From Allacma fusca (lineage: Eukaryota > Arthropoda > Collembola > Symphypleona > Sminthuridae), in NCBI GenBank assembly GCA_947179485.1, contig OX359246.1, forward strand, positions 2,480,001 to 2,544,000: DNA of 64,000 bases, read 5' to 3'. The translations under genes were made by a program, and so were the position numbers. Shown piece after piece: positions 9,676 through 59,187 of the stretch. Every line of letters begins with the position of its first letter. Positions within the stretch are counted from its first letter, which is position 1. The notes beneath the pieces are model-generated. The model had not been told where the DNA came from and ran no database searches. It saw only the letters and a list, made by a program, of their open reading frames with translations.

Positions 9676-9724
9676 CTGAGGATTGGTAATAATCATCTTT
9701 GGATCCTATTTAAAACCATTTGCC

Positions 9725-14700: not shown

Positions 14701-15476
14701 GGATGCCCGTCATGTATTTATTCGGACAACGGTACAAATTTCCGAGGAGCTGACAGGGAATTACGACAAGCGATGGATGAACTGGATCGAAATAGAATAA
14801 AAACTGAACTTACATCCCACAAGACAGATTGGAAATTCATCCCGCCAAGATCTCCTCACATGGGGGTGCTTGGGAGCGCCTAGTACAGTCCATAAAAGTA
14901 GCACTGAAGTCAACCTTAAAGGAACTCCATCCTAAAGAAGAGACTCTGCGGACACTACTCTTTGAAGCAGAAAACATTAATTCCAGGCTCATAACTCATG
15001 TTTCTGTTGATCCAAATGATATGGAAGCGTTAACTCCAAATCACTTCCTAATCCACACTTCCAGTTCAACTCCCACGCCAGGGGAATTTTCCGACGCCGA
15101 TTTATTCCTCAGAAAACAATGGAAAATATCACAACGATTATCAGATATATTTTGGCAACGATGGGTCAAAGAATATTTGCCCACTCTTCATAAGCGTCAA
15201 AAATGGAACATCGACTCACCTCCAGTAAATGTCGGAGATGTCATAATAATTGCTGATGACCAATTCCCTCGGAATACTTGGCCCAAAGGAATCGTAGTCA
15301 AAGTATACCCCGGACGAGATGGTCGCATCCGGGTAGTAGATGTACAAACCAATACTGGGACTTATCGCCGGCCATGTACCAAAATCATTGTACTCGACGT
15401 TCTTCCAAAAGAAAGTGAAGAAAAACCGAATCTTCACGAGGGGAGCATGTGCACGCCGAGTCCCATGGCAACCTGA
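11700..15476 (+). pseudogene. pol: BEL pol: reverse transcriptase, RNase H, integrase (disrupted)
   Basis: Reverse transcriptase occupies about 12400-13000 with GKLRIVMNAA, GADIKEMFPQI and the catalytic YMDD at about 12837. RNase H starts near 13385 (VFSDAS). A VPTKENPADD motif at 13733 marks its end, directly after an in-frame TAG. Integrase follows: the H-H zinc region around 14320, the first Asp in GMDGFG at 14536, the second in YSDNGTNF at 14719, and the Glu in GGAWERL after a one-base shift near 14870. A TGA interrupts the integrase at 14683. Other frame changes lie near 13250, 13600-13700 and 14440. All catalytic residues can be seen, but spread over several frames, so the gene is dead as sequenced. 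Confidence 0.87.
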
Positions 15477-28483: not shown

Positions 28484-29507
28484 CTCTCAACCCAATGTCT
28501 CTCGTGTTTGATTTCCAAGATAATAAAACCTGTGTGGAATTGCGACTAAACCCAGCCAAGACAAGGAAGGTTATTAATACCCATAGCAATGCTGTGCAAG
28601 TTGCAACAAATAACATGAGAGAAACTATTCCTTCGAATCTAATTGCTCCATACGAGGCGTAGATTGCTATTGCTACTAAACAATATTGAAGACTTGGTAG
28701 TAAAACTGGACTAACAAAAAGTCCGAATACTTTCTGAAGAACTTGGAATTTCCTGTAAACCCTTGTAAATGCTAATGGAGAACCCAGCGGTCTTGTGAGC
28801 CATTGGTCTTGAGTCAGGTCATTCAAAATTTCAGGTCCATAAAAAAACCAAGGAATCAACGGAAGGCCGATGACCAGGGAAGTCCCCGTGCAGGTCAGAT
28901 GCAAGTGTTGGAGCAAAATTACTTGCATGATGTAAATGCCCCATGTCAATTCTCTTGGTTGTTGAGTGAGTGATGTGAACAAAATCGGATGTTGTGGAAT
29001 GAGTAATACCATAAAAGTGGCTAGTACAGATACAATTATAGCATCATAATACAAGAACGGTAGAAGAACACTACATTTATCAACATGTTGAGAAATATTT
29101 TTTCCACTGGTTGTTGTTTTCCGAGAAAACTTTCCTGTCGAAAATAAATAACTTTCTTATCCAACGTGGCACAAATATACACCACTAGTATATTTGGAAT
29201 ATTTAATTCGCTACATTTTATACAAATATCTTCTGCATTGAATTATCTATGAATTTTAGAAGGGTCTACTGTAAAAGTGTTTTTTTAAATTTACGATTAT
29301 AAACGCTTTGTATTTAAAAATGAAATTGCTACCTTGATACATTTTCGCGAATTCATAAATGGCTTGCAGCATTAGTGGAAATTCTTTGCGTGATCTCAGT
29401 AGAACAAAACGAAATGATAAAACCAGGAGATATGCAGCTATATGCAAGATTAAAAGAGCCTGATTGATTATAAAGTTGTCATCCTTTTCCAAAAATGCAA
29501 GGCGTGT

Positions 29508-36059: not shown

Positions 36060-36845
36060 TAGGGTATGTCGATTTGAAAATACCCGGCATTTTGGGCAAC
36101 TTGCCCGCCCAAAATGCCAGGGCATTTTCATTTCAAGGCAAGGGCGGCATAATATAGCATATTGGGCAAGGGAATTTTTATCGACGACAATTGGGCATTT
36201 TGGGCAGAATCACGGAATATAATATCGCAATCTATTCAATTTGACATTGGATTTGAAAATTTCTTTGTAATTTTAAAGAAATTACCTTGACATACGTTTG
36301 GATACCATAGGTTATATTGAACATTTCAAGTTGTTAAACAACTAAACTGCAAACGATGTAGAATGAACTTCCACATTCGTGGGAATATTCACATACCCCT
36401 ATATATGAATTTATATTACTGCGATCAGATATCTTTTCGGTTAAAATTTGAACCCATACGGTAATTGTTTATAAACCATAAAACTACAAACAAAAATATT
36501 TGGGGGACCTTTAAAGGGGCTGTATATTGGTTTTTGGCTGATCGTTGCAAACTGCAGACAACAGTGATTAGAATAAACTGAGTATAAAATTCTGCTTCAT
36601 CACCCATTAAAATTTTGACTGATCCCTTAGCATCAAATTTTTACTTTAGGAGTTCGTACTTCAAAAGAAAATAGTATTTCTGCCCGCCCGTCATTTTTTT
36701 CATTTCATCATTCAAATAAATTTATTTCATATTATTGTTTACATGAAATTAATTTTCATAGGAGTGATAAATGATATCAGCTCATGTCAATGAAAGTAAA
36801 TTGATTTGGCTGTTTTTGCCATTATAATATATTAACGAACAAGCG

Positions 36846-37177
36846 TGTCAGGTGACAGTTCTGTAGTTGCCCACTAACTTATAACATTAGTATACGGGCT
36901 AGCCTGCCCATATGTATTTATACATAATCTTATGTCTATCTTAATGTATGGATGACGTGGCATTGGGATGATTGGGAATGAGTGGAGTCCCAACTCGGTG
37001 TGTCTCGTGGGACTCATTAGTAGACGTTGGGACAGCTAGCAAGTAAGACATTATAACTTTAGGAGTCTAAGGAGTAAGACCTTAGCTAGTAAGTAGGTAA
37101 TTAGGAGGCTAGCAAGTCAGTAATAAATAAGTGTGCTCTAAAAGTATCTACGAACCTTCATCCATTTATTAGCACGC
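36846..37177 (+). repeat. Gypsy 5' LTR
   Basis: 332 bp, starting TGTCAGGTGACAG and shared with 51462-51793 up to ATTAGCACGC. If the LTR must end in CA, it ends four bases earlier at 37173. AATAAATAAG near 37126 may be the polyadenylation signal. Confidence 0.9.
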
Positions 37178-38001
37178 ATAAGTTACAATATTGTCCCTGC
37201 TGCTCAACCCTTTTTAAGGAGTGGCCCTGATCGTTTTTAATGCTGCCTGGAACTTCCCTGTGTTGAACAAAATCATCCACATCGGATCCGGAAAGATTCT
37301 CTACATCATTTCATACATTATTAATGACTGTTCCGTGATTGCTAAGTGTGTTCCTGCGAGTCCTTTAAATATATCCTGTCCTCTGTAATTGTGTTAATAA
37401 GATTTCGATTTAATTGGGTTCATGTGTAATATTTCCCCGATTACTACGTTACTCTCCGCTGTGACCGGATTTATTTTTGAGGTTATTTTTACCATAATAT
37501 TTCTGCATTTCCCCCTTTTCCCTGCTCATTCACTCAAATTTTGAGTCCCGCCTGTGTAGTCGTCATATCATTGTGAACTATATAAAATAATTATATGGTG
37601 AAATTAATTTTCTATATTGTGTGAGCCTTTGGTGAGTCTAAAAATTTAGCCGATACAATTCCTGTTTGGTTCGCCCATCTTGTCCGACCCGTTATCATCA
37701 AACCACGCCGTTGTCCATTTGATCCTGGAGTAAGTACATACCCACGGAGGATCAGATAAATTTCACCTTGACCACCTGTGAACTCATCATATCCAGATAC
37801 GCTGGCTATTGTTCCTTCAAGGTCTTGTTGATAAGATTTCGCTGACCCGTGTAATCTCCGATCAGGATTAATTTTTTGGGTTCTTTTTAAGCATCCAAAT
37901 TATCAACGTGGCCGTAAATCAGGGCCGAATAATTATCTTACCCGTGATTTGTTTAACTTGTGCCTGTTTGTCTGCTTTTATAGTATCTCGATAATTCAGA
38001 T
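37178..38001 (+). other. Gypsy leader (untranslated)
   Basis: About 820 bp between LTR and gag with no long frame. I do not recognise a tRNA-complementary primer site beginning TGG directly after the LTR, which is unusual for Gypsy; the priming mode is unresolved. Confidence 0.6.
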
Positions 38002-39484
38002 ATGGATCTACCTCCTGCTCACAATGATGGTGGCTGGGCTCCATCGGACCCATCGGCTTGGGATTTATTCGGTGCTTCTCCAGATTCACCACTTCCACCT
38101 CTACAACCTACTCAACAATCGTCTATTATGGCGTCCGTTAATGTGCCCGCACCTGATCTCCCCAGTGACTTTACTCTTCCCATGACTCCGAAATTTTCTG
38201 ATGAGAAGTACCGTAGGCTGGACCGTTTCCGTGCTGAAGTTGAACAAAACTACAGCGATGAGGATCCTCGGGCCTTCGTCCGTCATGTCAACCACTACTC
38301 CAAGGACATGTTTGTAAGTCCCGAATCTGTGGTACTTAATTTACGTAAATTTTTTCAGAAGTCTCCGGACAAGGCGGTAAAAAGAGTGGTTCCGTTCAGA
38401 ATTTCCGCGGATACGGCTCTTTGAGGAACTTGGTGGGCCCGCTCGTGACATTTGGGATTTTGTAGCCACTAGTCTCATTGACCGATTTGATCACGCCATT
38501 CTTCAACCTGAGAAGCAGGCTGCTTTGGATGGCTTTCGGTATTCTCCTGGCATGACAGCGGAGTCCTTTGTTGCCAAATTAAAGCACCTTTGCCTAGATT
38601 TCAATCCGCGTATGCCGGATGCGGACATTATTGAGCGGGCCCGTGGTAAATTGCCTTCCCGTATGGAGTCACTTGCAATAACTCGCTCCCGAACTCTCCA
38701 GGAATTCGTGAAAAATACCCGCGGTCTACTCCGGGATCCCGAGATGAATCCAAGTGCTCGGACACGTGCTACGATTTCCTCCGTATCCCAAGCCCCACAG
38801 GTGGCCGACAACTCAGTGAGAGCGAATACCACCCAGGTGTGTGACTATTGCAACCGCAATAATCACCATTGGAAGCAATGCCATGACCTCCAGAGGGACT
38901 TGGATGCTGGAAACACTACCCGGCTCATTTCAATGATGGAAACACGTAATGGTAGAGTCAACCGAAATAATAATAATAATGTAAATAATTTTGTGCCAGG
39001 TGCTAACGGGTTTTTCGCAGGCCAGCAACAGCTTCGTCCTCCCTCCCAGTTTCAGCACCAGCAACAACCTTCACGTCGGAATTCAAATTGGAACGTGCCT
39101 AATAATAATGTTCAACAATATTTTCCAAACTCACAGGATCTGATGCAGTTTGACGACGGTCCTCCTCCGTCCCAGCAATGGAACAATCCACCTCAGGGCG
39201 GAAACTCAAAAAATCTACCCAATTACCAAGCCCCTCGTAACTATCCACGTCAGGATAATTACCAGGGACAACAGTCTCATTACCAGAATCAACAACAATC
39301 GTATTATCCTCAGGGCCTGAGAGCTCATTACTCCTCGGCTCCTCAACAGCAGAATACAGGACGACGTCCTCCTTGGAATGACCGTGGGTATCGTAATGCT
39401 CAGCAACAGCAGTTCGCTGGTCCAATCCCTGCGTCACAGCCACAAGGACATCCTGGCGTTCCCGTCAACCCGGGAAACTGTTAG
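38002..39484 (+). pseudogene. gag: Gypsy gag (one frameshift)
   Basis: ATG at 38002. The first frame runs to a TGA at about 38422 and the protein continues in another frame (reading on through GPARDIWDFV) to the TAG at 39484, so a single-base change near 38415 separates two halves of one gag. After a capsid-like helical region (about residues 55-280), a nucleocapsid knuckle CDYCNRNNHHWKQC (CX2CX4HX4C) sits at about 38840. It is followed by an Asn/Gln-rich tail of some 180 residues (QQQ, NNNN and PPSQ runs). In this family gag packages the RNA; the Q/N-rich tail is unusual in length. Confidence 0.82.
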
Positions 39485-39546
39485 GTCTGGCGTTCGGGGA
39501 CGACCAGACCAACCTGCCTCATTCCACGTTCTCCACAACAACGAGT

Positions 39547-42500
39547 ATGCCGGCAACCTATTCCAAATCGAAACTGGAGGCCCGCAAATCTTGTTCAACT
39601 ACGTCGGTCCCAATTGTCCGACACTTCTCAGCTTTCTCTGATTCCAATAAAATTTACAATCCTAACCTATTTGTGCCATCTGATTGCCCATCTATTTGCA
39701 GGGATGTGATTATTGACATGCCGGATGAACCTACCGACCCGCCAGTAATTCCGCCTCCTGCTCGGGCTAAAAAGAAGGCTCGATTCAAGGATGAGATTCC
39801 CCGATCTCTTCCACAGGTTGATTGTAATGAGGGTTCAAAAACTCCCAACTTAATTAGTAAATACTACCTGAAGTCCCGTAAACGTATGGTATTGCGGGCA
39901 ATTCCTAACTGCGGATTTCCTTTACATGAGGACGATACCAGTCCCACCACTAATGATGGGGACGAATCTGTCTCATCGGAGTCTGTAATGATACAAGAGG
40001 TCCTCCGTCTATGTAAACTCACATATACCCGTAAGGACATTGTTTACCCGTTACGTCTCGCAGGTCATCGTCTCACATTGAGAGCCACTGTAGACACGGG
40101 ATCTATGATCTCCACGATGGCAGCTGCTACTGCCTCTTACTTAACTAAATATTGCCCTCAATCAATTAAAATTATTAATCTTGATCCCCAAACTTTTACT
40201 ACAATTTGTAAAACTCAAACAGGTTCGTTTTGTAGGTCTGCAATACTGTATTTCCACACTAATCGTGCCGAACATCTGGGTCATAACTACCGTTTTGCCA
40301 TTATCGAAGAAATGGACACTTTAGTTTTATTAGGTCTTAATTTTCACCGCAGGTTTGGTCTTCGCTTGGATATCCACGCTGATTTGATCGAGTACTACGG
40401 TCTCAATGGAACCGCCTGCGAAGACAAAGTTGGCCACTCTGACTCAGAAAACATGTGGATCGACACCAACAGTGATTGGAGTATTCGGAATTTAGATGCT
40501 CCATTCTCGGATTCTCTCGAATCATCCCGAGATCCGGAAGAGCATCCGGACGATCATGCTCGCCGTCGCAAGAAGCTTTACGCCTCTCTTGCTCGTAAGT
40601 TATCCAGGGAGGAGTCTAAGATACTTCGTCCCACAATCGACAATCTCGAACCTGACGACTCCGTTAATGAGTCTCTAGAGGTACACAGTCAACCCTCAAT
40701 CATGTCTGATCAATCATGTCAGAATACATTTAGTGATATTCAGTCACCGGCAATTAGATTTAGTGATTATCAGGAATATTCAATTGATTCTCAATTTGCT
40801 CCGAATACGGAAATCAATAATAATTTTTGTCCTACAGCCCAAGTCTTACAGGTAAATAAACCGAGACAGCGCTTTACAAAGGACGAAATCAAATTGGGTC
40901 CGAATATAACGGAACCGCAAATGAAAGGAATTATAAATATAACAAATAAGTACGCTAATAATTTTGCAAGAAATGATGAAGAACTAGGAGTAGTTAGATT
41001 ACCCTCCTGTAGTAATTAATACAGGCGATCATAAACCTTTCCATAAGTGTTCTTACAGGTTAGCACCGCTCGAAAAGCAGGTCCTGGAAGAACACGTGGA
41101 ACGCAATCTGAGACTGTGCGTGATTGAGCCTTGCGTCTCTCCTTATAACTCCCCTGTTATAGTCGTCCCCAAAAAGATGGATGACCAGGGAAACCTCCAG
41201 CACCGGGTCTGTGTCGATCTACGACAACTCAACGACCAGGTGGAGCAAAATACTTACCTCTTCGCGTGGATGACTGCCTGAATCACCTGGCCGGCGCAAA
41301 ATGGTTTATCACCCTCGACGCCCTCCAGGGATTCCTCCAGATGCGCCTATCCGAGGACAGTAAGTTGAAAACTGCCTTTGCTACTCCGCGAGGTAAACTT
41401 TGTTATAACCGCTTACCTTTCGGTTACAAAAATTCACCCGCAGAATATCAGACTATGATGGACACAATCTTGGGAAATTTAAAGTATACCGTTGCTTTAG
41501 TATATATAGATGATCTGCTAATGTTTGCTGAAGATTTCGACACTCTGTTGGTCCGGTTGGACATGGTTCTAGCTCGGGCCCAATCCTTTAATTTAACCTT
41601 TAAAGTCTCTAAATGTTACTTTGGCTTTAATCAATTACACTTTTTAGGACATGTAGTCAGCTCTCAAGGAACAGGCCCTGACCCTGCCAAAATCGAAACT
41701 GTACGAACATTTCCGAGCCCTAAATGTTTAAAAGAAGTAAAATCATTTTTAGGGTTTTGCAATTATTATAGGACCTTCATCAAGGACTTTGCTGGGAAGG
41801 CTCGCCCGTTGCATCATTTATCAAAAAAGGATGTGCCTTTTGTGTGGGGCGAGGTTGAAGAGGAAACATTCCAAAAACTGAAATAGGCCATGATAACGGC
41901 TCCGGTCTTGGATTTTTTTGACCCCTCGGCTTCTATCCGTTTGGTCACTGACGCTAGTGGCTATCGTATTGGTGGTGCCTGCGAGCAGTCTCACGATGGT
42001 AAAGTTTGGCGTCCTATAGCATTTGCGTCTTGCTTACTTAAAGGATCGGAGTTGAATTATTTGAACCCCGAAAAAGAGTGCCTCGCTATTGTTTATGCCT
42101 TTGAAGTTTTTAGGCCGTACATTATCCAGGTCAGGACCGACAAAGCAGCTCTGACTTCATTGTGTACAATGAAAGACCCTCACTCCCGAATTGCACGTTG
42201 GCAACTAAAGCTGGCCCAACAGGAGAAGGAGGTAGTCCATGTACCGGGTAAGCAAATCCCACATGTAGACATCCTGTCCCGGTATCCACTTCGTTCTCCT
42301 CAAATACCGGTACCTCAGTTACCCATTCAGATACTCGTCGAGGACGAACCTATTATTCAGGTTGTATTGGGTGTTCATGTTGAGGAATATTCTAAGCATC
42401 AACGAAAAGATTCTTCAATTCTAAGCATTATTAATGATTTAATTTTAAATGGTACTCCGGATAATGTTTATGGAAACAGATTTTCTAATAAGTATGCTCT

Positions 42501-43932
42501 TATTCAAGGATTAATGTTCCATATAGATAAACGATCCTCCGAGCCCTATAAGCTTGTGGTCCCGCCTACACTGAGAGGATCAATTCTCAAATTATCTCAT
42601 AATGATGGTCTGAATGGTGGACATGCTGGAATATACAAGACATATTCTAAGCTCTACCGCCACTATTATTGGAAGCAAATGAGATCCGACATTTTAAAAT
42701 ATATTCAGGGGTGCCCTACATGTCAGGCTGGAAATCCTTCAACTACGAAGCCTCCTGGACACATGCTTATGGTCCCAACTCCTGATGAAGTATTCACTAG
42801 AATTGCCGTAGACTATGTCGGACCTATTGATCCCATTTCCAAGTCTGGTAATAGGTACATCTTTGTGGCCATTGACCATACTAGCCGTTTCGCATGGGCA
42901 GCAGCGTCCCCCATGAATACTGCTCATGACTCTTGTAGATTGTTACAAAAGTTAATTTTTGAACAAATTGGAGTTGTCCCCTTCATTGTCACAGACAATG
43001 GGCCCCATTTTACAGGTTCCGAATTTGTCTGATTTTTGGAACGCCACGGTGTCAAACACATACGGATTATGCACAATCATCCCGCCTCGAACGTTAATGT
43101 GGAACGCAATAATGCGGAAATTAAGCGTTACATTCGCAGATATGTGTCGGCTAGCCGTGACAACTGGGATGAGTTGCTCGGGAAGGCCTGTAAAAATCAT
43201 AATATGCATGTACATGCCATGCCTAAGTTTACACCCTTTAGTTTAGTGTATGCAGTTCCGCCCAAGACAAAATTTGATCTGTTGACTTCAGTTATCTCGA
43301 CGGAACCACATAAAAATCCTACCGATCAACAGGAGGAACGTCGTGCTCGTGTTGTACAAGCTAATTTGAATACTACGAAAGCACAGGAACTTCGAGCTCA
43401 GAAGTTTAACAAAAACCGACATCCTAATACTTTTAAAGTCGGAGATTTGGTTTGGCTCTCTGACAAGGTTCGCCGTGGTCTCCAGCTTTACTGGATAGGC
43501 CCGTATCAAATAGTCGAAGCGCGTGGTAGTACCTCCTTCATTGTGGAATACCGCGGGACTAAACGTGCTAAACACCGTATTCTCCGAGTCCATTCTCATA
43601 ACATGAAATTATATAGGCCCCCTGTAGCATGGCAGAATGAATATGAGGATGTTTTTGTTCATAAAATCTTAAATGACTATGCTAATCATAATTCTCTACA
43701 GGAAATGCGCCCGGAGCATCGTTACCGTGACAGCCCTCCTCCTCTTCATCCTCGCCGACCTATTATTGTACCATTTGGATCTTCCACCGATTCCGGGGAT
43801 GACCAGCACTCTCCGTGGGTCACTAGACTTCGTTCATATGTCCCGAGTGTCCGAGCCAGAAGTCAAATATTGGACGTTTCTCAAGCTCCTCAGCTGGATG
43901 GGTTAAATAATACTAAAAAACCCACCACGTGA
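39547..43932 (+). pseudogene. pol: Gypsy pol: protease, RT, RNase H, integrase (disrupted)
   Basis: Protease active site VDTGS at about 40090. RT spans about 41060-41560, with PYNSPVIVVPKK, VDLRQLND and the catalytic YIDD at 41513. RNase H starts at LVTDASG (41943) with YNPEKE-like NPEKECLAIVYA. Integrase has H...H plus CPTC zinc ligands (42600-42730), VDYVG (first Asp), VTDNGPHF (second Asp, about 42990) and NVNVERNNAEIK (Glu, about 43090), then WIGPYQIVEA, a GPY/F module. Lesions: frame changes near 41005 and 41268, TAG at 41884, TGA at 43030. All catalytic residues are present, so the copy was functional until recently. Confidence 0.87.
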
Positions 43933-43987
43933 TTATGGCTCTGAATCTTTCCATTAGCTCTATTACCCACCTAATACTACGAAATTT

Positions 43988-46969
43988 ATGTCACCGAGAT
44001 CTCCTATTATCACTAGATCTCGATCTCGTGCGGCAGCGGCGGCTTCAAGTGCCATTCCGCCCACTCACAATCAGCCCCCAGAGCCTGATTTTTCCGATTT
44101 AATTCCATTTCTTAATTCTCAAGAATTTTCTGCTTCGTTTAAACAACATAATGTTGTTGTTCCTTCACAACCTGTGATTTCCAATCCTGATCAAGGCTCT
44201 GCACCCAAAGTTGCGGGCACTCGCTCTCGCAAAACGTCTATTAACGTACCCAATGACGAGTACTTACCTCCCAAAACTACGGCAAGAGAGGTGGTTCGAT
44301 CTCCCGTAGTGACCCGGTCCAGAGCCCGCTCTGACACAGCCGTACAGACAAATAGGTAGTGAGTCGGTTTTAGAACTTAATCGCATCCCTATTTATCCGC
44401 ATCCTCATTTGGACGGACCTGACTGTGTCGTTAACTCCCAATCAGCTCCTAATTGTGTCTCAATATCCAGTACGATAGGAGGTGACACAATTGTTTCCCC
44501 TCTTAGTCCTAATACATTACCATCTTTATTTGATGAATCTACCTATACTTCTGTTTGCTCAGATTCTGAGCTTCAGGATCCTCCGATTTTGTCTCCTCCG
44601 AAGTTACCACTTATATCTACTTCGGGTAGCGTTGACAATTCTACCGATCAACTAATTACCTTGCCGGGACAAAAATTTTCGGTTCCGCCTTTTTCAATAA
44701 ATACAACAGAGACCTTAACTACCTTCATGTCCCCGACTGACCACCACATAGTGAGCCCGTTTCAAATAGCTCACCCTTCCACTTTATCGCTATCAAATAC
44801 ACAGAAACAGTCCTCTGTAGGGCCCCCAATATTAGTCACGCCCCCAACTCCGGCGGCTCCGGCTCAGTCTGAGTCACGTTGTTCGTTAATTCCAACTACA
44901 TTTCCTTTTGACTCCGGGGGTTCATTTCCCATACCGTGTGCTTGCAAACCTAAACTGACCCTTAATGTCACTAAAGGTGAAGTCCCAATCATTAATGTAT
45001 GTCCTCCCAGCCCTCAGGTAATGGGCACTACAGATTTAAGTACTTCATTAGTTAATTCATTTTTGCCACTGTCGAAACAGGAGGATAAATTTACTGAAAC
45101 TGTCCTACCTAAACCCAATTCAAAATCTGAATCTCCGACTCAGCCTTCGGAATAACATCCCCGCCGAATTCTCGAACGGAGATATTTTCTCAACCCGATA
45201 GTCCCGAATTTACGAACCAGATATGTACAAATTTGCTTGATACATTTAATTCTATTTCTACAGAGGATTATCCACATACAGTTAGACTTGACTCCAAGAT
45301 AGTTACGACTGGCCCAGTAACCGCTGACGCTACTTTAGCCCAAAATACTGAAGTTTTGCCTTATATAGAGGAACTGTTACAAACGGTTGGTTCATCGGAA
45401 TCTAGTCTCAGCGGCACAACTGTTGACTCTCCCGTCCGTTCTCCTGATCGAGCCCAGAACTCTACGGTTGATTTATTTACCTCGGCTCAGGGTTCTGAAA
45501 CCATGTCTTAATCCTTTGATCATCCTGATTCCGATGAATTTGTTGACCCACTGTTTCACTCATCTGCTCATGACTTACATAACATGACAAAAGGGTGCCC
45601 ACCAGTAACCTCAACACATTCACCTACATCTCCAATCCTTACTGACACGGCTAAGAGTCCTGTGGATAGACATAGTCCACCAGATTCTATTTCCGTTCCT
45701 AAAATTTTTGCCTCTACTCAGCCACATGTGTCCCCGTCTTGCCAAATGGACTGGACCCCATACCGCCGTACTTACGAGCCGTGTGATACTGGGCCTTCCT
45801 CATTGCCATCTCCTGATACTCAAACACCCAATCGGTTATCGAGCTGTACGGACTCAGTCCAGTTGTCTAAACTTGCCTCTGTTACCAGTAAACGTTTCCG
45901 GGTATCTCCGACAATGCCAGAGGGTACTTCCTCTCAAACTATGCATAAGCGTTTGAATCAGGGTGGATGTACCATTTACAATACAAGGTCGGTAATAACG
46001 CGATACTTGCCCGTAAATGTCCGTCCGATAGTTCTCTCCGAATTCCGGGTGTCTCCTACGCAGATGTGGTTACTAAATCAACTAAACACATTGTATCCCG
46101 CCCCAATAGTCAATCACACCCATTAAATATTTGTGCCCCTGCATTTTTTGCCTGCGGGAGCTATGGCTCCGCCTTCTCCTCCGGAGGTCACCAAACAGAC
46201 CACTGGTTCGTCTCCCACACAGTCCATTCCTGTTAGTGATAACACTAAACTGGAAACTGTCAGGAACTCCTCCGTGGACCTTCGTAGTCCTCCATTGCCC
46301 CCATTGAGGGTACTCTGCAGGGAGCAACTTCACTATTGAAGTCCCCACCTGCGGTTTCACATATCGTTAAACATACACCTAACGAACTCTCTAGGAACTA
46401 ATACTCTTTTTATTTCTTCCAGGTCCGTGCCGACGGATGGTCCTATTGATCCCTCTATTGTTGCGGGGCAACAATACCCCAACCCCGGGGGAAGGACGGG
46501 TATACCCGTTACCACTTCAAAATCTACCTCAAACTCATCACATATATTGAGAGGAGCTCCTAAGTTCGGCTCCGCATTTGTTAAAAATGCTCCTCAAACT
46601 ATCGCAGAAACTCCGCCCCCAGAGGTCAAACCCGTCACCTCTGCTAGTCCGGTTTCGAAGCGGGCAGTTGTCAAAGGGTCTCATGAGGACTTTCCGAAAG
46701 CTTTGTACAACCCCCTAACTTCTAAAATGGTTCCGAAAAGTTCCGGTTCCAGCAAATCATCTACGGGCTTCCGTAAGAGCAATAAAAGTTCCATTCCAGA
46801 GCTGGAATTAAATCATATTTTAGCTCGCCCAGCGGCCAAGGCCGTGGCTCATCAAAACTATGAAGGAAGTCCTCAGGCTGCGGACGTACGATCCCACGAA
46901 TTCCGGCGCAGTGGACGCCAAAGGACAAAAACAGATCTATTTCAGTCCCTAGATATTCGTAAAAAATGA
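43988..46969 (+). pseudogene. Gypsy ORF3: Ser/Thr/Pro-rich protein of unknown function (interrupted)
   Basis: ATG 55 bp after pol. Most of the 3 kb is open in one frame: pieces 43988-44359, 45233-45511, 45584-46126 and 46427-46969. The piece 44409-45155 is in another frame, and stops fall between pieces. The predicted product is of low complexity with many SP, TP and PP pairs, a basic RSRSR/RTRSR start (ITRSRSRAAAAA) and a basic end (RRSGRQRTKTD). A splice-acceptor-like tract (TTTTTATTTCTTCCAG) ends at 46422 just before the last piece. I recognise no domain, and there is no signal peptide or membrane segment, so it is not a typical env. Composition suggests a disordered nucleic-acid-binding protein. 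Confidence 0.55.
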
Positions 46970-48109
46970 GTTGGGACTGCTCTATGGTTTGGTGTCTTTT
47001 TGTCATTTTATATGCTAATTTTTGAAAACGTTTTCATTCATATTAATATGACAGGATTATTGGTCCTAGTTAAAATAATAATGAATGCACGGGCACGCTT
47101 CATTAAAAATGAGAGCCCGCTTAAATATTATTTTGAATATTTTCTTTGGGACATTGCTCCGGTGTGTCATTTGAACACAGTGTGGGGAGTTTCAGGGAAA
47201 ATTTCATTTAAATTTTGAGAATTTCAAGGGTATGGGTTATTTTGAGCTTCATGCAAAGTAGGAATATTTCCAGATTTATTCCTTACTTGTCCTAAATTGA
47301 TCCTATAAATATTCCTAATTTTTGACACAAAGTGGATTTGGAAATGTTAAATAATTTACATAATTATACTAAATGTAATTTATTATATGGGCACAGGCCC
47401 ACCACATGTATGGATTTTCCATGAAAATCCTACTTACATTTACACAAACATAATACATAATCCTGAATAATAGGTATTATTTTTATTTAAAGTAACAGAT
47501 TACTTAACCATAATTCCCATTCTGTTTTGAATCTGCCTGTTTGGTAAGACCGAACGTGCACTTTACCCCTAAAAAGATACCTACACATACACATACACAA
47601 ACATTTACACTTCTACGAAGTCTATAGATTATACTATAGACACACGTATAGGATGTACATATATGACCTCAGAAAAGTGTCTTTTAGACCAGGGTCATCC
47701 TTCCTTCCATTTATGGTAATTTCTCTTGGGTAAGGAATTCTTCTTTCTTCATAATTTACTTCCATTTATCAGTCCCGAACTGCGTGAGGCGGACCTGTTA
47801 AAACTGTTGGGAGATATGAAAGTGGGTCAGTACCATAATTACATTACCTACTCCTAAGACTCCTAGAATTTATTAATAACCTTCCAAGATAATCAAATAT
47901 TACATTTGCCTAACAATTCCTACCTCAGTTACCTAAAGCAGTAAAAATAGTTTGCCTGTCACAGACCTAATAATTTACATTTTGCATTCCGCACAATTTA
48001 CCTTAAACAATCTACTCTGGTCTCTCAACTGGAATTCCTGACCAGTTAATCCTGCCTAAAATTTACTGGATAAAATAAAACCTTACCTTTGAGTAATCCT
48101 AGTCACTTT
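46970..48109 (+). other. Gypsy internal non-coding stretch
   Basis: Over 1.1 kb of AT-rich sequence inside the element with no long frame. It contains a short ACACATACAC microsatellite near 47580. It probably serves as intron or leader for the downstream ORFs. Confidence 0.5.
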
Positions 48110-48111
48110 TT

Positions 48112-48259
48112 CTTCATTCCAATTCTGATCCTCGATCGCGTGGCTGACTCCATTTTCGCTCTCCATTGAAGTTGAGACTGCTTCTCGTGGTTCCCTTCGG
48201 ACTGCTCTTCTGGATCCTTTAGTCGAAGCTTTTTTACACGATAAATTAGACACGGAGAC
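48112..48259 (+). other. Possible shared leader exon of the Gypsy accessory ORFs
   Basis: An open stretch after a TGA near 48109 reads through ETASRGSLRTALLDP and ends at GGAGAC|GTAAGT, a strong donor at 48260. The donor leaves two bases of a codon. The acceptors at 48420 and 50004 both supply one base and then continue in the frames of the two downstream ORFs. An upstream acceptor could be the AG near 48170 after a pyrimidine-rich run. This is inference from splice motifs and phase only. Confidence 0.4.
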
Positions 48260-48420
48260 GTAAGTTTAACACTATATTGGTTCTCTGTAAATTCTGTAGA
48301 ACATAAGAATATTTTTAGTGTATATTGAAAATCAGGCCTGAAATACGGGACTAGGTCTTTATGTCCGCGGATAGTATAATTAAAATATTATGAACCTTAC
48401 CCGCTTTTTCGGTAACGCAG
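48260..48420 (+). other. Candidate 161-bp intron in the Gypsy accessory region
   Basis: Begins GTAAGTTTAAC and ends TTTTTCGGTAACGCAG. Removing it joins the preceding open stretch in frame with the ORF whose ATG is at 48428. Confidence 0.4.
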
Positions 48421-48427
48421 TTTTTCC

Positions 48428-49612
48428 ATGGCTCAACAGCTTCTACATAAGGGGGCCCGTGTGTTACCTGCCCGTTTGGCCAACAAGCACATCCATACCA
48501 ATCTTGCGGATCGGTTTGAGAGGATGGAAGATCATCTTACTGTTCGAGAACCTACAAAAGAAACCGAATCCAACGAGTGGTATCTGGCATACTTCAATGA
48601 GGTTCAGGAGCAACGAATTAAACTCCTCCCCTCCGAATTTGTCCTGGAAAGTTATAGGGCTGAGTGGTTCCAATATTTTGTCGCACTCACCAACACTGAT
48701 TCCCACCACTCCCTTAACGTGTCCGTCTTTGATACACGTACCAACGCCCCCATTTCTGAGGACTATGAAGATTTCCAATCAGTTTTGGATCTGGATGATC
48801 TTCGTTATTACTCCCCTCCTTCAGGATGGGAACGTTTCAAGAAGGTTCATCAAGTGCTGACTATGAGAATTGTCGCCTTGCCTAAGATGTTTTGTTTTAC
48901 ATGTGCCAGTCAAGAACACACTTCTACAGCATGTGCCCAACCTAGCCAACCCGATACAGTGGTTTGGATCGACTTGGAAGACCGACTGGAGCAATTACAA
49001 CAATTAATTGCTCAAGCTGAGGGCGTGTTGCTTTCAACTAAACTTTCAGCCGAACAACCTCTTCATCAGCAACTAACAATTCTCTCCCTCCCCTCTTCTC
49101 AAGATCAATCTATTGACTCCTCCGGGTCCGACTACAGAATCATTAGTCTTATGAGCCCCTGGACACAACTCACTAATTTCCGATATTTCTTTGCCCCAAT
49201 TCCCCCGGAACTTACTATTTGCTTTAATGATAACTATTCCCGAAAGTTTCACTCCACTGTTCTTGCATCACTATCTGTGCATATGCGTCGGCTCATTGGT
49301 CAGGACCGAATCTTTAATTTTGAGGAGCGTCTAGAGTTTAAGTGGGAGTCATGTAGCTCCGATATTTTGAATTTGGTGTGGGAGTTATTTTATGATGGTA
49401 AAGTTAACGTCCATCAAACTCTGCTCTCACAATTTAAGAAGGGACTCCATCTTCTACGAGTCCCTTTCTACACCCAGACCCGTTCTTCCAACTTTCCTCC
49501 CACTCCCTCCCTCAGTATCAACAGTGTCAATAATGAGGCTCGGTGTGAGCTCTGTTCCATGCCCACTCCGACATTGGATTTTTTGGTGACTCATATGAGG
49601 TACCATGAATAA
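48428..49612 (+). CDS. Gypsy accessory ORF4: CCHC knuckle, BTB/POZ-like region and C2H2 finger
   Basis: 394 residues, uninterrupted, ATG in TCCATGG context, in the position where env usually lies. Three things are visible. Residues 156-169 are a CX2CX4HX4C knuckle (CFTCASQEHTSTAC). Residues about 259-349 follow the BTB pattern: a hydrophobic strand (ELTICFND), F-H-S-T-V-L-A-S-L-S (compare the F.aHk.vLaa.S of BTB domains), a strand-helix, then LVWELFYDGKVNV and LLSQFKKGLHLLRVPF, like the .iYtG.v.v and .ll.aA..L.v parts. Residues 373-393 are a perfect C2H2 spacing (CX2CX12HX3H). There is no signal peptide or membrane helix. The order BTB then C2H2 is that of host BTB-ZF transcription factors. 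Knuckle and finger are certain as patterns; BTB is a pattern-level call. It is intact although pol is broken. Confidence 0.6.
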   Translation: MAQQLLHKGARVLPARLANKHIHTNLADRFERMEDHLTVREPTKETESNEWYLAYFNEVQEQRIKLLPSEFVLESYRAEWFQYFVALTNTDSHHSLNVSVFDTRTNAPISEDYEDFQSVLDLDDLRYYSPPSGWERFKKVHQVLTMRIVALPKMFCFTCASQEHTSTACAQPSQPDTVVWIDLEDRLEQLQQLIAQAEGVLLSTKLSAEQPLHQQLTILSLPSSQDQSIDSSGSDYRIISLMSPWTQLTNFRYFFAPIPPELTICFNDNYSRKFHSTVLASLSVHMRRLIGQDRIFNFEERLEFKWESCSSDILNLVWELFYDGKVNVHQTLLSQFKKGLHLLRVPFYTQTRSSNFPPTPSLSINSVNNEARCELCSMPTPTLDFLVTHMRYHE

Positions 49613-50004
49613 TATCTTGCTGCCGTCCTCAATTAATTATTTAATTTACATTACTCCACATCCTTCCCATATAAACTTTGGGAATTATTACATTACCTTA
49701 CCTTAACTTACCTTATAAATATTGGTTATTTCGGCTTTGCTGAGCAGCTCTATATACTGTACCATAGACATTCTAAACACTGCCCCGTTATTACGGCAGG
49801 ACGGTTTAGTTTTCTCCATTAAGTACTTACCTCACACTCTTCACACTTGTTTATTCAGGCACCAGTTCTCCAAACGTGTGTGGCTCATATCTTATTATGT
49901 GCGTGCCATTGTTTATTTAAGGATCATTATAATCTTGATTTTTGTGTCTCCAGTGGGATTATTATATAAATATAATCCTGATTCTGATCTTTTTCTTTTT
50001 TCAG

Positions 50005-51108
50005 AATAGCATTCTCTAAGAATCAGGCCGGTAGGGTGATTGAGGAGATTCGGACGATGGCCATTCTGGCCCGCCACTTAGTGACTTCTGCTGAGGCTGA
50101 ACTGGAGGACTCTGTTACTGTTACTTCACGCACCTTGGGGGAAATGATTGATGCCTTTTTGATAGAGAGACCTGGCCTCATGATCGTGACGACTTTTGAG
50201 GAGGGTGATGATATTTCTTGGAGTACTCAAATACGTACTTTAGTGGATCAACTTCCCTCGGCTGATGGGATCGGCCGTGAACGGGAGCTATGTATTCTGA
50301 TCCGAAGTTATTTACTGACGATTCGGGATCACTGCTCGGATTCTTCGAGTGGATCCGTTAATTATACCTCCGCTGCTCGAGAAGTCTCTCCTGCTCCGGG
50401 CGTTCAAGAACCTTCTTGGACTGCTGGCACCACTGCGTTGGTTTCCACTGCTCCGACCTCCTATATTAAAGGAGCTCCCAAGGACGTATCGACAGTCCAT
50501 CCTGATCAACGGCGTAAATGGGGATGCTTCCCCGCAAATCAAGCACCAGCTTTCCCAACTTGGATTTCGGCTACGCCTTCCAATGAGGTTTACACTTCCT
50601 TTTTTCCCCTCATTATATCTTAGATGACTTTTTTGCTCTCCCAGAGGGTCGAGAACATGCGGCCACTCTGATGGGGAATCGCTATGAGTGCGTCATTATT
50701 TTGGATCCGAAACAATTCGGCACGACTTGTCGTCAGATCCGAATTACGGGTACTGTTCCAGCCATTCGACACCTACAACACGAATTTACGGCTGAAATCC
50801 GCCGAAAGGGATTTACCATCAAGAGTCCCGAACGCATTACGACGCCACTTGACGCTCGTCACGCTCTTTTGGGCTGGGTTCCACGTAGTCCAGCTGACGT
50901 CATGGAATTTACACTGCCAGTTTGTGGATTTGTGACCTCTGACGATCGAGCTTGTTTGGGACCGCATTATCTTCGGGACCATGCCGGCTGCTTCAAGTGT
51001 CGTGAGAACGTCGTCCGCCATACTAGTGCACGATGCCCATTTTATCCTCGGGGCCATAATGAAGTTCACTTCTTTCGACTTCCGGGTGCCTTTCCCGATG
51101 CTAATTAA
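50005..51108 (+). pseudogene. Gypsy accessory ORF5 with a Cys/His cluster (one frameshift)
   Basis: A strong acceptor (TTTTTCTTTTTTCAG) ends at 50004. From 50005 the frame is open through residues such as IEEIRTMAILARHL to a TAG near 50623. After a one-base change in the T6C4 run near 50600, the protein continues (DDFFALPEG) to the TAA at 51108. The first half is helical then Ser/Pro-rich. The second half ends with CFKCRENVVRHTSARC (CX2CX7HX4C), preceded by another Cys/His pair, so probably a zinc site. No known family recognised. It lacks an ATG near the acceptor, consistent with a spliced leader. Confidence 0.5.
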
Positions 51109-51461
51109 TTTATATGCTATGTGCTCATATTTTTACTAGTATTGTGCCGTAGTGATTTGATGCTGTAATTATTTGATGCCTTGATGACTGGTGTGCGATT
51201 TTTGTGAAATTGATTCATGTAGTGTCGGTCGTGCTTAGATGTAGTCATGTATGTTTATGCATTAGATGTGTAGGCCTGTTAGCATTAGCCTATGATTTTG
51301 TTCTTTATATTACTTGTATGGCCCGTTGGCCCACCACTTATATTTTGTAATCACAATAGCCTTATATTTCTTTATTACCGTGTGGTCTATGTGCGCACTC
51401 CAATTTCTCCTCCCAGCTTTCCATTGTGCGGGGACGCACAATACTCCCCACCCGGGGAAGA
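51109..51461 (+). other. Gypsy 3' untranslated region with polypurine tract
   Basis: No frame. It ends in CCCGGGGAAGA immediately before the 3' LTR, a likely plus-strand primer. Confidence 0.65.
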
Positions 51462-51793
51462 TGTCAGGTGACAGTTCTGTAGTTGCCCACTAACTTATAA
51501 CATTAGTATACGGGCTAGCCTGCCCATATGTATTTATACATAATCTTATGTCTATCTTAATGTATGGATGACGTGGCATTGGGATGATTGGGAATGAGTG
51601 GAGTCCCAACTCGGTGTGTCTCGTGGGACTCATTAGTAGACGTTGGGACAGCTAGCAAGTAAGACATTATAACTTTAGGAGTCTAAGGAGTAAGACCTTA
51701 GCTAGTAAGTAGGTAATTAGGAGGCTAGCAAGTCAGTAATAAATAAGTGTGCTCTAAAAGTATCTACGAAACTTCATCCATTTATTAGCACGC
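51462..51793 (+). repeat. Gypsy 3' LTR
   Basis: 332 bp, apparently one substitution from the 5' LTR (CGAAAC here, CGAACC there). Confidence 0.9.
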
Positions 51794-52081
51794 TACTTAC
51801 ATTACGGGCCTGCATACTTGAGCCATAAATATTATTTAAGAATTATTAGTATTAATTAGTTATAAATGTTAAGCTTCGTAATTCTAGGTCTGATTTCACT
51901 GGTGTGATCTCACAAGCGAATAACCAGACCTTCACATTTCTAACTTTTCCTTAGCTGCGCTTCCATGCATTTGGATGGATATTCTGAATATATGCTAGTA
52001 ATAAAATTTTGGTGCCATGAAAATGCCCAACTTGCCCTACCCAAAATGACCAAAATCAGGGCATTTTCAAAAGCATCCCAC

Positions 52082-57297: not shown

Positions 57298-58223
57298 CAG
57301 AGCTATGCAAAATACTTGGTCTTCGATGAAAAAATACAAAATAAAATACCTGAAATAAAATATGGAAAATACAAAATACAAAGTAAAATACCTCAGGTTA
57401 CATTGATAAAATACAAATAAAAATACAATACACGGTAGGTAATTTAAAATACTCAAATACAAAATACTGTATTTTAAATAGAATACTTTCCTTAAAATAC
57501 CCACATTTTGCTCACTCTTTTCGGTTTCTAGAACACAAACCTTTTAAAACAGTCACGTCAAAGGCTGCATATAAGGCATGTGTAGTAACAAAATGTTCAA
57601 CGGTTGCCGAATAGGTCAGTCCATTATAATTATATTTTAAGTCGGTTTAACTGTTAAAGAAGTAATGTGGATTAACATAAAATTTTTATTTATAAGTAAT
57701 TAAATGTATTTTCGGAATAATTATTATAAAAGGAGTTAGTATCTGAAAATTAAATCGAGTCGGTCTTCGGCGTATCTTAAATATCGTCGTTGAAAAGGCA
57801 AAATGGTCTGTGCTGTACAAAAGCATGCGCGCGTAGACCATTTCTCCTCTTCAACGACGTTATGTAGTATCGAGAACCTGAACAGGTTAGATGCAGCAAA
57901 GGGATTCATTCCAACGTATGTTATTTCATTGCTAAAATGAATTTTTCACAGATATTGCACTTCATACAAGCTGCATACAATGTCAAAATCAGAAATAATA
58001 CTAGTGAAAAGTATTTGGAGCCAAATACTTTATTTGAAATACGTTTCACATGTCATTGAGAGTAAGTAAATACCAAATACTTTTGTACTTACTGGCTCTC
58101 AAAATACTAAGTACAAAATACTTGCTCACTGCTTACCAGCTTTGAAATACAAAATATAAAATACTTTGTGGTCTCAAAATACGTATTTTAAAATACTGTA
58201 TTTGAAAATACTGCATAGCTCTG
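57298..58223. mobile_element. Non-autonomous hAT-like element (AAAATACAAAATA-type) in exon 2 of copy F
   Basis: 926 bp, flanked by the 8-bp duplication CATGAGAG (57290-57297, 58224-58231). Inverted ends are CAGAGCTATGCA on each side. The subterminal arrays are AAAATACAAAATAAAATACC variants, and a small foldback element is nested at 57782-57862. A fragment of the same family lies at 60876-61139. Confidence 0.88.
57782..57862. mobile_element. Short foldback element (TATCGTCG ends)
   Basis: The inverted ends read TATCGTCGTTGAAAAGG and, opposite, TAACGTCGTTGAAGAGG; inside them AAATGGTCT pairs with AGACCATTT. It is a short relative of 61728-62067. The very short loop makes it a near-perfect hairpin. 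Confidence 0.7.
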
Positions 58224-59187
58224 CATGAGAGCAACTATTCCTTTGAATCTAATTGCTCCATATGAAGTGTAGATTACAATTGCCATTGCACAATATTGAA
58301 GACTGGGTAATATAACTGGACTAACGAAACGACCAACTAATTTCTGAAGAACTTGCAATTTCCAGTAAACCTTTGTAAATTCTAATGGAGAACCCATCGG
58401 TTTTTTGCGCCAACGGTCTTGAACTAGTTGACTTAGAATTTCAGATGAATAAAATAAACAGGGTATGAAAGGCATTCCAACGGTCAGGTCAGTCCCAATA
58501 CATGAAAAATCTAAATGAAGAAAAAAAATGACTTGCATGATGTAAATACCCCATGACAGATCTCTTGGGTGTTGAGCGAGCGATGTGAACAAAACCGGAT
58601 ATTCGGGAAATAAGAATGCGACAACAGTGAAGAGCACAGGTACAATTATGGCATCATAGTACAATAACGGCAATATAACACTACATTTGTCGGTATTTTG
58701 AGAGAATTTTGTTCCCCTTTCCTGCTCAAATTTGTCTGTTAAAAATAAAGGATAATTTTGTCAAAGTAATTACAGTGCGTATCCAACTGACATGTCTACA
58801 ATATTTGTATTTACAAACGGAAGTGATACCTTGGTAAGCTTTCACGGTGGCATGCATGGGCTGTAACAATTGTAGAAATTCTTTGCATGAAAGCAATAGC
58901 TGGAAACGATATGTTGATACAAAAAGATATACGGCTATATGCGCAATCAAAAGAGTCTGATTGATGATAAAGTATTCATCCTCTTCCAAAAATGCAAGGC
59001 GAACACATAAAAATATTACAAAAAGAGTCAATTCCAAAACATTCAGGTGCCACAGAAATTTGCCAGTTTTTGATTTTATGCAGGAAAAGGATTGATCTTT
59101 TGGATTCCATTGGTAAGGACTGCAGTGCAAATAGTTGCTCCAAGAAAATGCTTTGTATGTGTATTTTGTCACGTGTTCAGATTACAT

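What the first reader, a model, noticed from the sequence alone, without database searches (positions are those of the whole stretch)
48428..49612. Gypsy retrotransposon carrying a BTB-like, zinc-finger protein in the env position
Seen: one intact 394-codon frame with a CX2CX4HX4C knuckle (residues 156-169), a perfect CX2CX12HX3H finger at the C-terminus (373-393), and between them a stretch (about 259-349) whose strand/helix pattern and key positions (F.H..VLA..S, FYDGKVNV, L..GLHLLRV) match BTB/POZ domains. Known: BTB-C2H2 proteins are host chromatin factors such as the tramtrack group; Gypsy elements normally have env or nothing here. Inference: the element captured a host-like regulator, perhaps for integration-site choice, silencing evasion or dimerisation of its particle. 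The frame is clean while pol is broken, which would fit selection on it or a recent source copy.
Basis: partly seen in the sequence, partly recalled or inferred. Interest (0 to 1): 0.8.

Follow-up and report, generated by a model that had tools for sequence, protein, structure and literature searches.

The report
Springtail Gypsy retrotransposons with BTB protein
A lineage of jumping genes in what is probably a globular springtail genome carries, where a retrovirus would keep its envelope gene, a conserved gene for a protein with a BTB domain (a protein-docking module of animal gene regulators) and a zinc knuckle, which suggests that the elements bring their own regulator-like adaptor.

Summary
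The finding holds and reaches beyond this copy. The 394-codon frame (ORF X) lies inside an LTR retrotransposon at 36846-51914 flanked by a 4-bp duplication, AGCG. BTB is weak for this copy alone (Pfam E 0.017) but firm for its family: in the same genome (392.7 Mb, the size of Allacma fusca) a search listed 54 near-full-length matches, this copy included, 40 without an internal stop; 36 aligned members all hit BTB (best E 4e-11), and their profile retrieves solved BTB proteins. Ten other copies were read with flanks: gag sequence lies upstream in 10 of 10, pol sequence in 9; seven show LTR pairs 98.7-100% identical. X is under purifying selection (median dN/dS 0.21-0.31 in five subfamilies) and shows no transmembrane-like segment in 8 proteins tested, so it is not an envelope. 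Constant parts: N-terminal domain, CCHC motif, BTB; the C-terminal C2H2 finger is in the window's subfamily only. N-terminal and BTB halves were exchanged between elements. A second accessory ORF (Y) follows in some copies. Host origin was not tested. Function is inferred: a spliced, BTB-dimerising, nucleic-acid-binding adaptor to host machinery. My literature searches listed no LTR-retrotransposon-encoded BTB protein.

The parts
36842..36845 (.). target site duplication AGCG, 5' copy
   Evidence: AGCG directly before TGTCAGG and directly after the 3' LTR
36846..37177 (+). 5' LTR, truncated: its 3' end is missing compared with the LTRs of copies L005 and L002; the motif that follows the LTR in those copies (TGGTGGAGGTGCGG) is absent from the window
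   Evidence: 331 of 332 positions identical to the 3' LTR; alignment to the L005 and L002 LTRs; pattern search, only a chance-level match with 3 mismatches elsewhere
38002..39484 (+). gag in two frames, with CCHC motif CDYCNRNNHHWKQC
   Evidence: gag-related matches upstream of X in 10 of 10 flanked copies
39547..43932 (+). pol: protease-like part (weak, Pfam E 0.24), RT, RNase H, integrase; interrupted by in-frame stops at 41017, 41884, 43030 and a frame loss at 41017-41182
   Evidence: Pfam RVT_1 9e-24, RT_RNaseH 1e-25, Integrase_H2C2 1e-19, rve 2e-8; stop map
43958..46969 (+). Ser/Thr/Pro-rich region, read as the C-terminal tail of the pol polyprotein (frame-broken here; in frame with pol in copies L028, L009 and L013)
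48419..48420 (+). AG of a putative 3' splice site just upstream of the ORF X start
   Evidence: AG within 12 bases before the start in 37 of 38 start-bearing copies, against 43% of window ATGs; with a pyrimidine-rich stretch 29 of 38 against 12%; copies are not independent
48428..49612 (+). ORF X: N-terminal domain, CCHC motif, BTB, C2H2 finger; 394 aa
48893..48934 (+). CCHC zinc knuckle motif, residues 156-169
   Evidence: C159, H164 and C169 in 36 of 36 and C156 in 35 of 36 aligned members; Pfam zf-CCHC itself hits only 1 of 36
49205..49474 (+). BTB/POZ domain, residues 260-349
49544..49606 (+). C2H2 finger, residues 373-393, only in the window's subfamily among aligned members; last His is Arg in P0002 and L006
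50003..50004 (+). AG of a putative 3' splice site before ORF Y
   Evidence: preceded by tttttcttttttc; also AAACAG right before the Y start in L058
50006..51108 (+). ORF Y in two frames (50006-50620, 50587-51105); ATA where P0005 and P0006 have ATG; C-terminal Cys/His cluster
51453..51461 (+). putative polypurine tract before the 3' LTR
   Evidence: sequence
51462..51914 (+). 3' LTR, full length, TG...CA
   Evidence: alignment to the LTRs of L005 (88.5%) and L002 (93.0%)
51915..51918 (.). target site duplication AGCG, 3' copy

Best explanation
SHOWN: ORF X is a conserved accessory gene of a group of Ty3/Gypsy LTR retrotransposons in this genome. It lies between pol and the 3' LTR, encodes an N-terminal domain, a CCHC motif and a BTB/POZ domain (plus one C2H2 finger in the window's subfamily), and is under purifying selection. 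INFERRED: X is made from a spliced subgenomic mRNA, as env is, but is an intracellular protein. The BTB domain dimerises and docks on a host partner, while the knuckle (and finger) grips the element's RNA or DNA, so that X links the element's nucleoprotein complex or its integrated copies to host chromatin or BTB-binding regulators, favouring expression or integration. The gene part is about 0.9 likely; the BTB-dimer plus nucleic-acid adaptor role about 0.5; chromatin or transcription as its target about 0.35.
For: 36 of 36 aligned members hit Pfam BTB at E<=0.1, best 4.3e-11. The 36-member profile against the PDB gives as best matches a ZBTB17-BCL6 BTB chain (E 2.4e-7) and KBTBD4 (5e-7). Profile-profile against six PDB BTB domains: probability 97, E 1e-10. 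Upstream of X, gag sequence in 10 of 10 flanked copies and pol sequence in 9 of 10. LTR pairs of 98.7-100% identity in 7 of 10; exact 4-bp target duplications readable for L012, L015, L028, L035 and L002. Median dN/dS in five subfamilies 0.21-0.31; 14 pairs without shared members pooled pN/pS 0.27, Fisher p 2e-80. CCHC residues in 35-36 of 36, acidic residue at 261 in 36 of 36. X and pol distances correlate (Mantel r 0.71-0.90; 0-1 of 5000 permutations reach them). No hydrophobic 19-residue window above 1.38 in the 8 X proteins tested. X and Y relatives come from contigs of the same lengths, 46961 and 3640, in the protein database.
Against: The window copy alone is below Pfam's BTB cut-off, P0002 and P0003 too (P0003 by 0.1 bit), and P0004, frame-broken, has no BTB hit. 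With three sequences two shuffles of 9000 outscored P0001 on a six-sequence BTB profile, although P0002 and P0003 outscored all. Both AlphaFold2 models (3 sequences each) had mean pLDDT 32 and 45 and cannot be used. No expression or splicing data. Pfam's zf-CCHC model hits 1 of 36 members at E<=0.1, so the knuckle rests on the motif. At position 276 the Lys/Arg of other members (a BTB pocket residue, recalled) is Ser in four and Phe in one, all in the window's subfamily. One pair (L028/L029) has pN/pS 0.87.
Confidence: 0.75

Rival explanations
1. X is a viral-accessory-like adaptor for a Cullin-3 ubiquitin ligase: BTB binds host Cul3, and the N-terminal domain and knuckle capture a host restriction or silencing factor for degradation.
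For: BTB is the Cul3-binding fold in many proteins (recalled); KBTBD4, a Kelch-BTB protein, is among the best PDB matches. X distances are 2 to 4 times those of RT, RNase H and integrase (medians), as expected of host-interacting proteins. Planarian Burro Gypsy-like elements carry ubiquitination-related domains (PMC6431247, passages).
Against: No BACK or Kelch family was among the Pfam matches listed; the fast divergence is partly due to exchange of halves; Cul3-contact residues were not tested.
Confidence: 0.25
2. X is a structural component: a second nucleocapsid-like protein that multimerises through BTB and packages RNA.
For: CCHC motif of the Gag type; a nucleocapsid chain is the only PDB hit of the single sequence, at a non-significant E of 2.4.
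Against: Profile-profile against 8 Gag proteins of these elements aligns only the 22-residue knuckle, probability 0.2. The elements have an ordinary Gag with its own knuckle.
Confidence: 0.15
3. X is a passenger: a host or repeat fragment captured by chance, without use to the element.
For: Random captures by retroelements are known (recalled). The pair L028/L029 has pN/pS 0.87.
Against: Same position in 10 of 10 flanked copies of several diverged subfamilies; median dN/dS 0.21-0.31; 40 of 54 near-full-length matches without a stop.
Confidence: 0.03
4. X is a degenerate envelope protein.
For: Position after pol and an upstream AG like that of a spliced env.
Against: No transmembrane-like segment in 8 X proteins; BTB, knuckle and finger are domains of intracellular proteins.
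Confidence: 0.02

Closest known systems
Ty3/Gypsy LTR retrotransposons (Metaviridae)
   Same: LTRs TG...CA, 4-bp target duplication, gag, RT-RNase H-integrase order
   Different: ORFs X (CCHC plus BTB) and Y where env may stand; a long Ser/Thr/Pro-rich pol tail
LTR retrotransposons of bdelloid rotifers with non-envelope ORF3 (GDSL esterase, DEDDy exonuclease; PMC5408684, abstract and Discussion read)
   Same: accessory, non-envelope ORF after pol
   Different: those are enzymes; X is a BTB/CCHC protein; their authors report no significant departure from neutrality within the genome, whereas X is conserved
Giant Gypsy-like Burro elements of planarians (PMC6431247, passages read)
   Same: element-encoded regulatory domains (RING, MATH, BIR, ankyrin) that may meddle with host systems
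   Different: most of those sit in a giant polyprotein; BTB occurs 0 times in the main text
Orchid Gypsy elements with a 2-ODD m6A demethylase ORF (PMC9289625, passages read)
   Same: acquired extra ORF with a host-like domain
   Different: an enzyme, in plants
BTB-C2H2 proteins of the tramtrack group and vertebrate ZBTB proteins (recalled)
   Same: BTB plus zinc finger
   Different: here a CCHC motif precedes BTB, one finger follows in one subfamily only, and the gene lies in a transposon

Membership tests
Ty3/Gypsy (Metaviridae) retrotransposon | RT, RNase H, integrase in this order | tested here: met
   Pfam hits in order along 41266-43932; same order in 8 of 10 flanked copies, L002 has RNase H and integrase but no protease or RT match, L012 has no pol match
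Ty3/Gypsy (Metaviridae) retrotransposon | LTRs TG...CA with a 4-6 bp target duplication | tested here: met
   window: AGCG on both sides of 36846-51914; AAGT, TCTG, GTAC, CTGC and CAGT in L012, L015, L028, L035, L002; L005 CTTG/GTTG differ at one base; not readable for L038; no LTR pair found for L009, L013, L016
BTB/POZ domain (PF00651) | sequence profile match | tested here: met
   36 of 36 aligned members at E<=0.1, best 4.3e-11; the window copy alone 15.7 bits, under the 20.5 cut-off
BTB/POZ domain (PF00651) | BTB fold | tested here: inconclusive
   models of low confidence, mean pLDDT 32 and 45
BTB-C2H2 transcription factors | BTB followed by an array of C2H2 fingers | tested here: not met
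   one finger in the five aligned members of the window's subfamily, none in the other 31
CCHC zinc knuckle protein | CX2CX4HX4C | tested here: met
   35-36 of 36 at each of the four positions; zinc binding not testable here; Pfam zf-CCHC hits 1 of 36
retroviral-type envelope | transmembrane segment | tested here: not met
   maximum Kyte-Doolittle 19-mean 0.74-1.38 in 8 X proteins
retroviral-type envelope | signal peptide | not tested
   no dedicated predictor was run

The most novel reading that the evidence does not exclude
A group of springtail Gypsy elements has built its own BTB-class regulator: a spliced, fast-diversifying protein whose nucleic-acid-binding half and host-docking BTB half are exchanged between elements, acting as a trans factor that steers integration, insulation or silencing (a transposon-made counterpart of the host BTB factors that act on the Drosophila gypsy insulator, recalled).
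Probability: 0.3. Interest if true: 0.85.

Novelty: new variant of a known kind. Interest (0 to 1): 0.62.

Why it matters
LTR retrotransposons that gain genes after pol are known, but the extras described in the papers I saw are envelopes, enzymes and a few regulatory domains. A conserved BTB protein would be an element-encoded hub for host regulators and gives a concrete handle on how a retrotransposon might manage chromatin, silencing or protein degradation. Several near-identical LTR pairs point to recent insertions, which makes it testable.

Tried and rejected
AlphaFold2 on the full protein and on the BTB piece, with 3 sequences each, gave mean pLDDT 32 and 45; Foldseek (6 matches, none at E<=0.001) and VIA-align (5 rows shown) on the second model listed no BTB protein. 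With so poor a model this says nothing. With three sequences the profile-profile test was weak (probability 29 for the BTB piece, 12.5 for the whole); on a six-sequence BTB profile P0003 (13.6 bits) and P0002 (13.4) outscored all 9000 shuffles, but P0001 (8.2) was outscored by 2 of them. The 36-member family settled the matter. NCBIfam gave nothing for three proteins.

Search of viral contigs: 38 pattern matches, none confirmed. One tblastn of a piece of Y against phage records: no match. Protein database: three A. fusca proteins for X and two for Y. The diverged X subfamilies that this genome holds were not returned either, so the search does not show absence from other species. P0004 is frame-broken and was left out of A2. 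Idea that X is a spliced fusion with the 46163-46362 sequence (A. fusca gene model P0002): not adopted, since that stretch lies in the region read as pol tail and the model may be a gene-prediction artefact; it does show the same arrangement in another copy. Idea that 43958-46969 is an env-like ORF: rejected, since it continues the pol frame in L028 (one codon at the boundary of the two stretches was not read). Idea that X is a Gag duplicate: rejected. My first LTR reading (no target duplication) was wrong because the 5' LTR is truncated; corrected. One query (IN1) was translated out of frame; redone in frame. L046-L048 (sharing only the N-terminal part or only the finger) could not be placed in elements. 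Weak KH-domain hits in L047 and L048 (E 0.024, 0.13) are below cut-off. Rfam and tRNA scans gave nothing. Bacterial-type promoter and terminator scan: not relevant here and near its shuffle background. No host BTB comparison: the PF00651 search of this genome did not complete. Literature: searches listed no paper that, by title or start of abstract, reports a BTB protein encoded by an LTR retrotransposon; only open-licence PMC is covered, lists were capped, and most hits were seen as listings. The Troyka paper (PMC12440569, abstract and outline) was looked at because of the LTR ends and set aside: these LTRs are TG...CA.

Full report
WHERE IT LIES. The frame 48428-49612 is open for 394 codons. 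An open stretch of that length at a given place has a chance of 2e-9 with the element's stop frequency and 3e-7 with that of the ORF's own sequence. It lies inside one LTR retrotransposon. The two LTRs agree at 331 of 332 positions over the part that both have. Comparison with another copy shows that the 3' LTR runs from 51462 to 51914 and that the 5' LTR (36846-37177) lacks its 3' end; the motif that follows the LTR in intact copies is absent from the window. With these bounds a 4-bp target duplication, AGCG, flanks the element. Pol is of the Gypsy type: RT, RNase H, H2C2 and integrase core in this order. In this copy gag changes frame and pol holds in-frame stops.

SPECIES. The first protein search found relatives only in the globular springtail Allacma fusca. 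The genome that holds the window has 392.7 Mb, the size reported for A. fusca (392.8 Mb; PMC10427803, seen as a listing). The assignment is an inference.

IS IT BTB? For this copy alone the Pfam match is weak (E 0.017). For P0002 and P0003 it is 0.041 and 0.0006; P0004, frame-broken, has none. Structure prediction with three sequences failed. The genome search then listed 105 matches, a lower bound. By my count of that table, 54 of the 105 (this copy included) run from query residue 60 or earlier to 327 or later, and 40 of these 54 hold no stop in the matched stretch. I fetched 40 further regions and aligned 36 of the 48 loci then held. Left out were L004, L007, L008, L024, L026, L027 and L043-L048: stop or frame break, partial, altered end, late start, or sharing only one end of X. 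L006 and L017 were taken from the preceding stop, L025 from an internal Met. All 36 match PF00651 at E 0.1 or better, best 4.3e-11. Their profile against the PDB gives BTB chains as best matches (E 2.4e-7), and against six BTB domains taken from the PDB probability 97 and E 1e-10. Conserved positions include an acidic residue at 261 (36 of 36), V278, L279, S283, W306, W318 and Y322 (36 of 36 each) and G324 (35).

ARCHITECTURE OF THE FAMILY. The constant parts are an N-terminal domain without a Pfam match above cut-off, the CCHC motif (35-36 of 36 at each position; Pfam's own model hits 1 of 36), a middle stretch, and BTB. The C-terminal C2H2 finger occurs in the five aligned members of the window's subfamily only; one has Arg for the last His. 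Other relatives lack BTB: L046 has the N-terminal part and a finger in 303 residues from its first Met, and L047 and L048 share only the finger. So BTB may have been inserted into, or lost from, an older protein; which of the two is not settled.

CONTEXT. For ten copies I fetched 14 kb upstream and 6 kb downstream in two separate stretches each. Upstream on the same strand, gag-related sequence lies in 10 of 10 and pol-related sequence in 9 of 10. L012 has no pol match and L002 no protease or RT match, yet both have an open X and LTRs that are 100% and 99.8% identical: either they moved without a full pol of their own, or they lost it after a recent insertion. Seven of ten show LTR pairs of 98.7-100% identity; for L009, L013 and L016 none was found in the stretches held. 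The Ser/Thr/Pro-rich region after integrase is in frame with pol in L028, L009 and L013 (the codon at the boundary of the two stretches was not read), so I read it as a pol tail. An AG lies within 12 bases before the X start in 37 of 38 start-bearing copies and follows a pyrimidine-rich stretch in 29 of 38; for all 1142 window ATGs the figures are 43% and 12%. The 38 include L007 and L008, which are one place, and copies of a subfamily are not independent, so this is a lead for splicing and no proof. ORF Y, judged by its C-terminal half, follows X in the window and in 5 of 10 copies (L015, L035, L038, L002, L005). L028 has a shorter ORF there that resembles the start of Y in L035 by eye; the short ORFs in L009, L012 and L013 were not compared with Y. 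Y ends in a conserved Cys/His cluster and has no Pfam match above cut-off.

SELECTION AND EVOLUTION. Median dN/dS of X within five subfamilies is 0.21-0.31, with single pairs from 0 to 0.87. Over 14 pairs without shared members, pooled pN/pS is 0.27 (389 nonsynonymous differences over 11682 sites, 441 synonymous over 3600; Fisher p 2e-80); one pair gave 0.87, one had no differences, and some pairs may share branches. X and pol distances agree (Mantel r 0.85 RNase H, 0.90 and 0.89 two integrase parts, 10 elements each; 0.71 RT, 9 elements), so X has mostly travelled with pol. Median X distances are 2 to 4 times those of pol, and part of this is exchange: subfamilies B and C share 91-95% of the BTB part but 48-49% of the N-terminal half. 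For L009 and L013 synonymous sites are saturated in the first 180 codons of X, 0.88 in the next segment, 0.52 and 0.09 in the BTB segments, and 0.18, 0.09, 0.42 and 0.34 in RT, RNase H and two integrase parts. The halves of X behave as modules that are exchanged between elements.

HOW IT MOST LIKELY WORKS. Shown: domain content, position, conservation, absence of a transmembrane-like segment in 8 proteins, no relation to the elements' Gag beyond the knuckle. Inferred: expression by splicing, BTB dimerisation, nucleic-acid binding by the knuckle, docking to host regulators. I favour a nuclear adaptor that helps the element's expression or integration; a Cul3 adaptor is the main rival. Neither was tested.

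COMPARISON. Non-envelope ORFs after pol are known in rotifers (PMC5408684, abstract and Discussion); extra domains are known in planarian (PMC6431247, passages) and orchid elements (PMC9289625, passages). In the Crypton paper (PMC3212892, passages) the BTB domain belongs to a host gene, KCTD1, one isoform of which also holds a Crypton-derived part. In my searches no listed title or abstract start named an element-encoded BTB protein. I therefore call this a new variant of a known kind.

Noticed in passing
window 50006-51105: Second accessory ORF (Y) with a conserved cluster CGF...C.G.H.L..H.GC..C....H....C..YP; single open frames in L058:5629-6795 and L062:2807-4198; the start codon ATG of P0005 and P0006 is ATA in the window copy.
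   Followed up: partly
L012 and L002 (flanks L051-L052, L065-L066): Elements with LTRs 100% and 99.8% identical that lack pol matches, or protease and RT matches, but keep an open X: possibly non-autonomous derivatives.
   Followed up: partly
L047, L048: ORFs sharing the finger of X, followed by a stretch with weak KH-domain matches (E 0.024, 0.13); context not seen.
   Followed up: no
L046: Relative with the N-terminal part of X and a C2H2 finger but no BTB match; several further genome matches cover the same N-terminal part only.
   Followed up: partly
window 9683-15476: BEL/Pao-type element in several frames (Peptidase_A17, RVT_1, DUF5641 hits).
   Followed up: partly
window 20990-23037: Fragment of a reverse transcriptase, perhaps of a non-LTR element (weak RVT_1 hit, E 0.0024).
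   Followed up: no
window 43-546, 6414-7349, 28332-29054, 58188-59172 (- strand): Related membrane-protein-like ORFs, perhaps chemoreceptor genes (my reading by eye; no Pfam hit for the two scanned).
   Followed up: no
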